From NCBI RefSeq assembly GCF_047663525.1, contig NC_092591.1, forward strand, positions 31,839,001 through 31,903,000: a stretch of 64,000 nt of DNA, given 5' to 3'. Below, piece by piece: positions 1-42,317 of the stretch. How positions within the stretch are numbered: position 1 is the first letter of the stretch; each line of letters starts with the position of its first letter. The notes under the pieces were generated by a model. It did no database searches. It was not told the origin of the DNA and worked only from the letters and a program-made list of their open reading frames with translations. Source of the stretch: Anas platyrhynchos (Eukaryota > Chordata > Aves > Anseriformes > Anatidae). The position numbers were made by a program, and so were the translations under genes.

Positions 1-344
1 CTCTCCCAGCAGGAAATATTCTGAGAAAGTGCCGTACCTGAGACAATTCACAAGTATGAATTCAAGGCGGGTGTGCAGGGTAATAACAGCAACACAGTAG
101 TTGATCGCCATTTGCCGAGGCGATCGGCTCCGGGGCAGACGCGTTCTGCAGCGGAGCGGGGGATCGGGCCAGGCAGGGCTAATTTTCCGGCATCGAGCCG
201 ACTTCAGGGAGCCGCCAGGACCCGGCAGCCCTCCTGAGGGAGGCTGACGAGGCGAAGGCGGAGCCAGCAGCGCCCCCTCCCCGGCCGTTCAACAGCTGCC
301 CCTAGGGAGCGCGGCGAACAGGGCGGGCAAACAGGGAGTGGCGC

Positions 345-483
345 GGCAGGGCGAGCAGGCAGGGCGAGCAGGCAGGGCGAGCAGGCAGGGCGAGCAGGCA
401 GGGCGAGCAGGCAGGGCGAGCAGGCAGGGCGAGCAGGCAGGGCGAGCAGGCAGGGCGAGCAGGCAGGGCGAGCAGGCAGGGCG
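345..483 (+). repeat. 13-bp minisatellite in CR1 5' UTR, 10 copies (U1)
   Basis: Ten perfect repeats of GGCAGGGCGAGCA plus a 9-bp partial copy. Each repeat carries a GGGCG core like a GC box. Because 13 is not a multiple of 3, the array is open in several frames on both strands and produces false ORFs. Could be an expanded promoter element of the CR1. Confidence 0.95.
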
Positions 484-535
484 GAGAGCAACCCCCTGCC
501 CACACGAACACCTCTTAACGACAGCCGTTAGCTAG

Positions 536-1621
536 GTGATAACGGTCTCCACCAGGCACGGTGCGCTCTCCAGGAGGTCGGTGTACACCCAGACCGACTG
601 CCCGTTAAAAAATGCAGCGGTTCAGGTCACGGGATGCAGGGAGTGTCAGAGCCTGCTGCTGCCGTCGGCGGGAGGCAGAGACGCTGCGTGCGTGAGGTGC
701 GAGCAGGTGGATGACCTGATCCGCATGGTGGCGGAGCTCAAGGAGGAGGTGGAGAGGTTGAGGGCCATCAGGGAGTGTGAGCGGGAGATAGACTGGTGGA
801 GTAACTCCCTGCAGGGCCTCAAGGAGAGGTACCGGGGTGAGACACCCCAGATGGGGGTGGACCCCCTGCCCTGTCGCCGTCGGGCAGAGGGAGGGGATCT
901 GGGAGTTGAGGAGGAATGGAGACAGGTCCCTGCTCGACATGGCAGGCGATGCCCTCCCCTTCCGGCCCCACCTTCCCAGGTGCCCTTACGAAACAGGTTT
1001 GAGGCCCTGGAGATTGAGAGACCAGCAACTGAGGAAGAGGTAGAAAGTGTTCCCAGGAGGATGCCTAGGGCGAGGAGGTCGACTCCACGCCTCAGGACTG
1101 CCTCCACCAAGAAAGACAGGAGGGTGATTGTTGTGGGAGACTCTGTCCTTAGGGGAACAGAGGGTCCTATTTGTCGGCCTGACCCTACCCGTAGGGAAGT
1201 CTGCTGCCTCCCTGGGGCCAGGGTCAGGGACGTCGCCAAGAAAGTCAAGTGCCTGGTACGGCCCACTGACTACTACCCGCTACTGGTCTTTCAGGCTGGT
1301 AGCGATGAAGTAGCAACGAGAAGTCCGAAGGCGATCAAAAGAGACTTTAGGGATTTGGAGCGACTACTTAGAGGATCAGGCGCGCAGATTGTGTTTGCCT
1401 CTGTCCTTCCGATAGGGGGGATCGAAGCAGAAAGGTGTGCTGTTCACATAAACTCGTGGCTTCGAGACTGGTGTGACCGGCAGAACTTTGGGTTCTTTGA
1501 TCACGGGAAGGCCTATGCTACACCGGGCCTGATGGCACCGGACGGGAAGGGCCTCTCTCGGAGAGGGGTAAGGATCTTTGGTCAGGAGTTGGCAGGGCTG
1601 ATAGATAGGGCTTTAAACTAG
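536..1621 (+). CDS. CR1 ORF1 protein, coiled coil plus SGNH-esterase-like domain (U1)
   Basis: This 361-codon frame encodes the CR1 ORF1 protein, an RNA-binding and chaperone-type component of the LINE ribonucleoprotein. Residues ~10-60 are Cys-rich (CRECQ, CVRCEQ). Residues ~58-100 are a charged heptad-like helix. Residues ~197-360 match the esterase (SGNH hydrolase) domain known from CR1 elements, with the GDS nucleophile motif at 201-203. The usual DGxHLS block near the end reads DGKGLS (336-341), so the catalytic His is missing and the domain is probably inactive. The frame opens right after a TAG and begins with GTG at 536; the first ATG is codon 64 (725). Start is therefore uncertain: non-AUG, lost ATG, or an internal start. 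Stop TAG at 1619-1621, 56 bp before ORF2. Confidence 0.8.
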   Translation: MITVSTRHGALSRRSVYTQTDCPLKNAAVQVTGCRECQSLLLPSAGGRDAACVRCEQVDDLIRMVAELKEEVERLRAIRECEREIDWWSNSLQGLKERYRGETPQMGVDPLPCRRRAEGGDLGVEEEWRQVPARHGRRCPPLPAPPSQVPLRNRFEALEIERPATEEEVESVPRRMPRARRSTPRLRTASTKKDRRVIVVGDSVLRGTEGPICRPDPTRREVCCLPGARVRDVAKKVKCLVRPTDYYPLLVFQAGSDEVATRSPKAIKRDFRDLERLLRGSGAQIVFASVLPIGGIEAERCAVHINSWLRDWCDRQNFGFFDHGKAYATPGLMAPDGKGLSRRGVRIFGQELAGLIDRALN

Positions 1622-39700: not shown

Positions 39701-40027
39701 CCCAGGCGTGCATACAGCTGTGGATGAGACATGCCAAGTGCCCGTAGCCACCCCTGTTAGAGCAGGCTGCCTTCACTGCAACAAGTCTGCTCCAGCAGGA
39801 AGCTGAAGCAGCGCTGCACTCACATCCTGACACGGAGCAGTAAGAGAGAGGCATACAGGGACTGGCTAGGAACAGGGGGATGTGTGGGACAGCAAGAAGG
39901 ACCCTTAATGAACCCCTCTTTTTTTAAACTTTTCCCCTTCCAGGTGACACTGATCAAGCCCCAGGCACCTGAAACCACTTTTGGAATCCGTCACTCCATC
40001 TATACAACTCCACTCATAGTGGAATAA
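36750..40027 (+). CDS. CIMAP1A: CIMAP1A (ODF3), U4 copy
   Basis: Coding exons: 36750-36855, 37481-37681, 38117-38218, 38399-38520, 38973-39113, 39944-40027. The protein is the same as in U1-U3. Intron 2 matches U2, intron 5 matches U1, and the 3' end matches U1, so this copy is a mosaic. It is the copy closest to DDB2, which converges on it tail to tail. Confidence 0.85.
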
Positions 40028-41394
40028 AAAAAAGTTCCCCAAAAGACCTGGCTTGTTCTCCTTGAGCTATGAGGAGAGGAATGAGAAGGAAGGGAAGCGG
40101 GGTGTGAGTGAGGAAGTTTCCTTTTCCCTCTGTAAGGTTAAAGCCTCAGCAAAAAGAGTTCAAGAGGAGAGCCCCACAATCCAAAGGGCACGCAAGACAG
40201 CCAGATCTACCGGCACCTTTTCACCTGCGTGCCTTCAACCCACTAGGCCTTGCATCCTGATTGCTCCCTTCACCCTGTGCCAGGGCCGTTCCTCTCCTGC
40301 AGGCTGCAGTGCTTCTGGCTGAGGAGAGATGCCAGCCCCACAAAGAGCCATCAGAGCTCAACGCCGCGCCATGACAGCACTCAGGGCCTTCCCTACCCAC
40401 TCGCACCCCACAGCCGAGCATCCTGGAGCTGCACCATGCAGCTGCTGCAGGGAACTTTACGCCAAGCGTTTACCACCTGCCTCGTAGCTTCCGGCAGCAT
40501 GCGAGACTGCAGCAGGCACCAGAAGCACCAGCACTTCACGTGGTGATGCTGCACATTGACTTCCCACCCTAAGTTCCCTTTCTGGTGCAGTTCCCTTCCC
40601 CTCTTGGCAGGGGAAGCCAGATCTTAGGTTACAGGCATTTCCTTTTCTTCCCCATGGAGTACCGTGGGGGCTTTTCCCTACACCTTATTGGCATCTGCCA
40701 GCATGGGAACTCTGAATCAGCAGAAGCAGCTTGCTTTTCTCAACATCTTTCCCACCTTTTTGGCCTCTGAAGATAGCATCTAGGTCTGCTGCATAGCAAG
40801 ACAGTCATAAGGGAAAAGCCACTGCCTGTGAGAACAGGCACAAGAAAGAAATAAGAGAAAGTACACTGAAGGGGACCAGACCTGTTATTTTTAAAGGCAG
40901 CACATTTTGCACATGCAGAAGAAAGGTTTCTGTGACGATTTAGACTTTTTGACTGTGAACGACTTTCTGTGATTGTTCCAATACATTTCCTTTTCATCAT
41001 TAAAATCAGACTCACACTGAACTCCACTCCTCCTGTTCTCTGAGCTCACAGGGCTAACCCCAGTGTGCTCAGTGTTGGAAAACAGAACGTACTGCAGTAC
41101 GCCCCCTCCCAAGGGGAAACTGTGATTTACAGTCCCAGCAGCAGACAGAGAATTGAGATAAACTAGTTTTGATGGCAGCAACCATGCTCAGACACAGCTC
41201 ATAATGCAGCTATCAAGGGTCCATTGAAGACACAGCATTACGACTGACTTCTCTAGTTCTAGTACTGTTCTAGTTCTCTTAGTTCATCAGGAGAAAGGTC
41301 AACATCTTCTAACCTCCCAAACAAAAGCAGCTCAGCAGAATGTGCAAAGCACCCACTCTATGTGCCACAGAAGGACTTCAGTTTAGTACAAAAC

Positions 41395-42317
41395 TTTATT
41401 CATACCAATACTGCAAAACTACAAAAGTGAACACAGAATCTGAGCAGGCCTGGAGCCTGTCCCATCCACCAACCTCTGGAACAGCAGCAAGGCCCCAGAT
41501 AGCTTTATTTTATTAACAAACTAGAATATGCAAAACTTTTCAGTTTAACAGCAGTTTCAAGATTTGGCTCTGAAAGGGGGTGTCTGGAAGAAATCCCACA
41601 TTTCTGCCTTAAAACATTCATCCAATATTCTGACGTGCATAGGCATGGGTGAGAAAAATTACCTAATTGGTAGCAAGAAAAAGCCTGGAGTTCTCGAGAT
41701 ATAAACTACTAAATCAGTAGGTTCCCAGCTCTGTACTGCCCATGCATCCCACAAGGCAGACAAAGAGGTCTGGCAAGTTCTTTGTGGCCTAGTTAAATAG
41801 CTGCAAGCACAGAATAGGCGAAGCCTGAGGTTCTGACAGATGCACACTGTGGGGAAAGCTGGTGTTCCTCGGGTCACCCAAGCTATCCATCACCTCACCC
41901 CTGCAAATATTGGACCTTTTCAGGACGTCAGTGTCACTAACAAAGGCTTCCTCAGTTCAGTTTGACTAGGACTCTCTGGGGACCCGTCATGAGCTGCTCC
42001 ACAGCGCGCTACATGAGGTGATCACCTCTGTTACCAATCTGTTACTGGTAACAAGCAGATGTGGCAGGCTGGAAGCAGTAACTGCAGCAGGATCTGAAGA
42101 CCTCTGAAGTTTCCCTGATGCCTCAGAAAATAGGTGGTAATTCCACCTGGAGGACAAACACAGCTCTCTAGAAGGGGAAGCAAAGGGAATCAGGGAAGCA
42201 AGATCAGATCCAGGGAAGAAGGACAAAGCAAGAAGGCTAATGCCCTGCAGCACTTATGCTGCCCTCTGCCAGCACTGAATTTGTCCTCTCTGATCCAGAA
42301 AGGATCAAAATACTAAA
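41395..42317 (-). terminator. Probable DDB2 3' UTR and poly(A) signals
   Basis: From the DDB2 stop at 42318 the minus strand has no earlier AATAAA until 41509-41514 and 41504-41509 (AATAAAATAAA), then 41395-41400. The 3' UTR would be ~0.8-0.9 kb and would cross the array boundary at 41596, so the DDB2 transcript end lies inside unit U4. No other gene is seen in 41597-42317. Confidence 0.6.

What the first reader, a model, noticed from the sequence alone, without database searches (positions are those of the whole stretch)
1..41596. Tandem amplification of a sperm-tail gene as a 10.6-kb cassette
Seen: at least four head-to-tail units, each with an apparently intact CIMAP1A gene including promoter, all splice sites, and stop/poly(A). 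Known: CIMAP1A (ODF3) is a flagellar/ciliary protein normally single copy in mammals. Inference: recent copy-number gain of a testis gene, possibly for dosage under sperm competition. The array runs off the left edge, so true copy number is higher than four if more units follow.
Basis: partly seen in the sequence, partly recalled or inferred. Interest (0 to 1): 0.85.

Follow-up and report, generated by a model that had tools for sequence, protein, structure and literature searches.

The report
Duck tandem array of ciliary gene
In what is almost certainly a duck genome, a gene for a protein of sperm tails and beating cilia lies in at least four head-to-tail copies that all encode the same protein, and database entries suggest that many other modern birds have several copies too.

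Summary
Four head-to-tail units of 10.5-10.6 kb end at 9955, 20559, 31119 and 41596. Each carries a complete six-exon CIMAP1A (ODF3) gene; all four encode the same 251-residue protein. Coding sequence varies at 1 of 756 columns, introns at 46 of 2521. An RFX X-box-like site and a TATA box lie at the same place in each unit. Unit 1 runs off the left edge, so four is a minimum.

This is a bird, almost certainly Anas: a mallard database protein contains intron sequence of unit 4. CIMAP1 proteins occur in all mammalian motile cilia examined, not sperm alone. I took 18 neognath species with two or more CIMAP1A-like rows; in 11 these form a species-specific clade, which suggests repeated duplication or concerted evolution. 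My paper searches found nothing on this.

Clustered, conflicting differences between units point to gene conversion. Each unit also carries a CR1-like LINE fragment that barely varies. Expression and total copy number are untested; sperm competition remains a guess.

The parts
1..9955 (+). Unit 1 of the array (incomplete at the left edge)
9956..20559 (+). Unit 2, 10604 bp
20560..31119 (+). Unit 3, 10560 bp
31120..41596 (+). Unit 4, 10477 bp; 41596/41597 is the right edge of the array
5103..8380 (+). CIMAP1A gene of unit 1, start codon to stop codon (six coding exons)
15707..18984 (+). CIMAP1A gene of unit 2: exons 15707-15812, 16438-16638, 17074-17175, 17356-17477, 17930-18070, 18901-18984
26268..29544 (+). 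CIMAP1A gene of unit 3
36750..40027 (+). CIMAP1A gene of unit 4
   Evidence: its intron reads as residues 1-36 of an Anas platyrhynchos database protein
4651..4680 (+). X-box-like site and TATA box of unit 1
15255..15284 (+). X-box-like site (15255-15268) and TATAAAA (15278-15284) of unit 2
25816..25845 (+). X-box-like site and TATA box of unit 3
36298..36327 (+). X-box-like site and TATA box of unit 4
10962..11087 (+). 13-bp tandem repeat of unit 2; exact copies 10, 9, 9, 4 in units 1-4
11140..13450 (+). CR1-like LINE fragment of unit 2 (ORF1-like frame, endonuclease; no reverse transcriptase found); the two frames have the same open lengths in all four units
   Evidence: the CR1 name, the ORF1 label and the 3' limit are recalled or read by eye
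42321..53940 (-). DDB2, single-copy flanking gene, convergent with the array (limits approximate)
   Evidence: only 50734-51000 was matched to DDB2 by a call, the other exons were recognised from memory

Best explanation
A genuine tandem array of functional CIMAP1A genes in a duck (Anas), at least four copies, probably on an autosome (DDB2 is autosomal in chicken, recalled). One ancestral unit, carrying the gene with its own ciliary-type promoter plus a CR1-like fragment, was multiplied by unequal exchange (inferred). The copies are kept alike by purifying selection on the protein (inferred from the near-absence of coding differences) and by gene conversion (inferred from clustered, conflicting variants). 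Each copy is probably driven by RFX factors in cells that build motile cilia and in spermatids (inferred), so the array probably raises the amount of one and the same protein rather than creating new ones. It is one case of a wider pattern of CIMAP1A duplication and turnover in neognath birds (inferred from database entries).
For: Unit structure; four identical proteins and intact splice sites; coding variation 1 of 756 columns, silent, against 46 of 2521 intron columns, Fisher p 8.5e-5, and p 0.0031 against all other columns; 13 of 6089 circular shifts of the exon mask, the true position included, have as few variable columns; X-box-like site within three mismatches of the recalled ideal only four times in 64 kb, once per unit; in the gene-bearing part neighbouring variable columns share the same copy pattern 55 times of 98, shuffle mean 17.2, highest of 5000 shuffles 36; patterns conflict: 0011 21, 0110 7, 0101 6; an Anas entry matches unit-4 intron; of 18 neognath species with two or more rows, 11 are monophyletic.
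Against: No expression, read-depth or long-read data. Clustered variants make the Fisher tests too confident; the shift test is safer. Synonymous change is also low (1 over about 185 sites), so homogenised exons could explain part of the coding identity; and the non-coding CR1-like part is as invariant as the exons (6 of 2525), so low variation alone does not prove selection. In 7 of 18 species the rows are not monophyletic, and some multiple entries may be isoforms, faulty models or different assemblies; in several species they lie on contigs of different length, so not in one array.
Confidence: 0.72

Rival explanations
1. Assembly artefact: one locus falsely repeated, or haplotypes strung in a row.
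For: Identity above 99.3% and the array runs off the window; no read data; the whole assembly could not be searched.
Against: Units differ by 38-72 substitutions per pair plus unit-specific indels, including one of 45 bp, and in the 13-bp repeat count; conflicting variant patterns among four copies do not fit two haplotypes; an A. zonorhyncha entry shows a further variant of exon 2.
Confidence: 0.1
2. A neutral, transient segmental duplication: the copies are near identical only because little time has passed, and most are not expressed.
For: The left 4514 columns differ by only 0.137% per pair.
Against: The gene-bearing part differs by 0.904% per pair while its coding sequence has one silent difference; X-box-like site, TATA box and splice sites are kept in all four.
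Confidence: 0.15
3. The near-identity of exons is mainly the result of gene conversion, with selection acting on few copies.
For: Strong clustering of variants; low synonymous variation as well; the 5' part with the CR1-like fragment is also nearly invariant without any obvious coding reason.
Against: Introns between the exons keep 46 variable columns of 2521, so conversion alone would need to stop at exon edges.
Confidence: 0.25

Closest known systems
[quoted passage not shown] section 9 read, other passages by term)
   Same: Amplified protein-coding genes in a galloanserine bird, many of them testis-biased.
   Different: Those lie on dot chromosomes rich in satellite DNA, with 386 intact copies in the example given; this array abuts the single-copy gene DDB2. 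The terms ODF, outer dense and CIMAP do not occur in that paper's main text.
Chicken Z-linked tandem arrays of four testis gene families (as described in PMC7787181, passages)
   Same: Tandem arrays of genes expressed in testis.
   Different: Other genes; that paper found no similar testis-gene arrays on duck chrZ, and ODF and outer dense do not occur in its main text. No call here gives the window's chromosome.
Mammalian CIMAP1A (ODF3) and its paralogues CIMAP1B/1C
   Same: Protein aligned over residues 4-251 with bovine and mouse CIMAP1A of solved sperm structures.
   Different: I noticed no mammal with two CIMAP1A entries in the listed rows, but the lists are cut at 120 and clustering at 90% hides near-identical copies; here there are at least four identical copies.

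Membership tests
CIMAP1A (ODF3) | Closest to CIMAP1A rather than 1B or 1C | tested here: met
   E 1.2e-75 to bovine 1A, 3.5e-46 to 1B, 3.4e-34 to 1C; groups with bird 1A-like rows in a tree rooted on two 1B rows
CIMAP1A (ODF3) | SHIPPO (sperm-tail PG-rich) repeats | tested here: met
   PF07004, 37.9 bits, cut-off 20
CIMAP1A (ODF3) | Binds doublet microtubules of motile cilia or flagella | not testable with these tools
   Known for mammals; not shown for duck
Tandem gene amplicon | Head-to-tail units with several complete gene copies | tested here: met
Testis-expressed amplicon | Testis-biased expression of the copies | not testable with these tools
   No expression data
Concerted evolution by gene conversion | Clustered, conflicting variant patterns among copies | tested here: met
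   sequencing or assembly error in clusters is not excluded
CR1 LINE (full-length, active) | Reverse transcriptase in ORF2 | tested here: not met
   The 451-aa frame matches only endonuclease families and closes at 13565; seven further frames between 13283 and 14869 match no Pfam family

The most novel reading that the evidence does not exclude
CIMAP1A became a multi-copy gene early in neognath birds and has since been kept as a fast-turning, concertedly evolving family, in contrast to a single gene in palaeognaths and other amniotes; the duck array is one snapshot.
Probability: 0.4. Interest if true: 0.65.

Novelty: new member of a known kind. Interest (0 to 1): 0.5.

Why it matters
If the copies are expressed, birds offer a natural dosage series of one axonemal protein across species with very different sperm and mating systems. 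It would also show that automatic annotation can garble such arrays: the mallard entry that matches unit 4 is named 'uncharacterized protein' and has intron sequence in it.

Tried and rejected
Rejected: mammalian origin (homologues and Anas match). Rejected: CIMAP1B or 1C. No Rfam family reaches its gathering score in the window. An older, shorter repeat inside the unit was sought; besides a match inside the 13-bp repeat only one 50-bp direct repeat (14637-14686 and 19331-19380, 92%) was found, too little to argue from. Microhomology at the amplification breakpoint could not be judged because the left flank is outside the window. Of the paper searches, two found nothing and eight gave listings (titles and starts of abstracts); I opened PMC9974502 (one section and passages), PMC7787181 (passages) and PMC11779644 (passages). 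I saw no CIMAP1A amplification in birds in any of these; the library lacks most subscription papers. Dropped before the tree: Coturnix P0058 (isoform of P0024), Dromaius P0134 (partial second entry, perhaps the same gene), Anas P0075 and A. zonorhyncha P0047 (intron read-through), and many single-entry species; rows were chosen by me from the listings.

Full report
Observation. Comparing the window with itself gives long direct repeats at a spacing of about 10.6 kb that stop at 41596. Cutting at the junctions gives four units, 1-9955, 9956-20559, 20560-31119 and 31120-41596; the 60 bases before each of the four ends are identical, and the sequence after 41596 differs from that after the other three, which marks the right edge of the array. 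Unit 1 begins outside the window and lacks 662 alignment columns. Pairwise identities are 99.31-99.62%.

The gene. Six coding exons per unit spell a 756-bp reading frame; all five coding introns are GT...AG and all four proteins are identical. Against solved structures the protein matches bovine and mouse CIMAP1A best, then 1B, then 1C, and it has the SHIPPO repeat family PF07004. The stop codon overlaps AATAAA. Upstream, an X-box-like sequence (the binding site of RFX factors that switch on cilium genes; consensus recalled) lies just before a TATA box, identical in all four units; within three mismatches of the recalled ideal it occurs only at these four places in 64 kb, reported on both strands because it is nearly palindromic. 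A looser form of the X-box consensus matches at very many places in the window, so only the closeness of the match is telling. Promoter activity was not tested.

Species. The best homologue among about 5.8 billion proteins is Cygnus olor (90%), and the next closest rows in the tree are Aythya and Anas. The Anas platyrhynchos entry P0075 reads intron sequence: its residues 1-36 match unit 4 at 100%, residues 2-36 match the other three units at 91%, and residues 109-291 match all four at 98-99%. The window is therefore almost certainly from Anas. A flanking exon on the minus strand matches DDB2.

Selection and conversion. Counting columns where all four units have a base, coding sequence varies at 1 of 756 (silent), introns at 46 of 2521, the CR1-bearing stretch at 6 of 2525. 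Fisher's test gives 8.5e-5 against introns and 0.0031 against all other columns. Because variants cluster, these values are too confident; sliding the exon mask round the gene-bearing part gives 13 of 6089 positions, the true one included, with as few variable columns. Synonymous change is also scarce (1 over about 185 sites), so part of the effect may be conversion. In the gene-bearing part, neighbouring variable columns share the same copy pattern 55 of 98 times, against a shuffle mean of 17.2 and a highest of 36 in 5000, and 24 of 98 gaps are 5 bp or less against a mean of 7.7 for uniform placing. All three pairings of units are seen. This is what exchange of short tracts between copies produces; clustered assembly errors are not excluded.

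An unexplained step. Left of 14470 in unit 2 coordinates the mean pairwise difference is 0.137% (4514 columns), right of it 0.904% (6045 columns). The left part holds the 13-bp repeat, the CR1-like fragment and an LTR-like piece. One reading is that the gene-bearing part has received tracts from more diverged CIMAP1A copies elsewhere that lack the CR1-like fragment; another is more frequent homogenisation of the left part. With a recalled bird rate of about 2e-9 per site per year the two values correspond to roughly 0.3 and 2.3 million years; these are rough.

Wider pattern. Three protein searches, each listing its best 120, showed CIMAP1A-like entries in many birds. I took 18 neognath species with two or more rows (counting the window for Anas), 45 rows in all, added 36 single rows, and built a tree of 81 rows. 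In 11 of the 18 the rows form a clade of that species alone: Cyrtonyx, Gallus, Mycteria, Phoenicopterus, Pterocles, Nyctibius, Agelaius, Certhia (support 70; the others 97-100), Chlamydotis, Pluvialis and Columba. In 7 they do not: Anas, Excalfactoria, Numida, Numenius and Cyanistes fall among rows of related birds, while the Phaetusa and Apaloderma copies are far apart. Entries can be isoforms or faulty models, above all in Columba and Gallus. Equal contig lengths suggest entries on one contig in Phoenicopterus, Chlamydotis, Gallus and Certhia, and two Columba entries on contigs of equal length bear consecutive tags; in Cyrtonyx, Mycteria, Pluvialis, Numenius, Nyctibius and Excalfactoria the contig lengths differ, so those copies are not shown to be in one array. 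The Phoenicopterus entry P0009 stands for 31 member sequences and the Excalfactoria entry P0015 for 35, whose make-up I could not see. Among palaeognath and non-avian rows I noticed second CIMAP1A entries only for Dromaius (a partial entry) and Anolis carolinensis (an isoform); the lists are capped and cluster at 90%, so this contrast is weak.

Function. CIMAP proteins bind close to the outer surface of doublet microtubules, and CIMAP1 family members are present in all mammalian motile cilia examined (passages of PMC11779644). An array of identical genes most simply changes the amount of protein. Whether it does, and whether sperm competition is the reason, was not tested.

The repeat content. 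The LINE fragment has a frame with endonuclease matches only; seven further frames around 13283-14869 match no Pfam family. The duck genome paper reports a recent duck-specific burst of CR1-J2_Pass (passage); I did not test whether this fragment belongs to it.

Limits. The own assembly could not be searched, so total copy number, other loci and chromosome are open. No reads, expression or population data were available.

Noticed in passing
window 13451-14200 and the matching places in the other units: LTR-retroelement-like piece with a polyadenylation-like signal on the minus strand, next to the truncated CR1-like fragment; resemblance recalled, no call identifies it (frames here match no Pfam family).
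   Followed up: partly
window 345-483, 10962-11087, 21566-21691, 32115-32166: 13-bp tandem repeat that differs in copy number between units (10, 9, 9, 4 exact copies), usable as a unit marker.
   Followed up: partly
window 14470 (unit 2) and equivalents: Sharp step in divergence between units, 0.137% left and 0.904% right.
   Followed up: partly
window 14637-14686 and 19331-19380: 50-bp direct repeat at 92% on either side of the gene, perhaps a trace of an older shorter unit.
   Followed up: partly
window 54501-55000 and 58001-58500: Two CpG-rich stretches beyond the DDB2 exons; the first is probably its promoter, the second has no identified gene.
   Followed up: no
P0075, Anas platyrhynchos database protein: Named an uncharacterized protein although it is a CIMAP1A copy with intron sequence read through.
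   Followed up: yes
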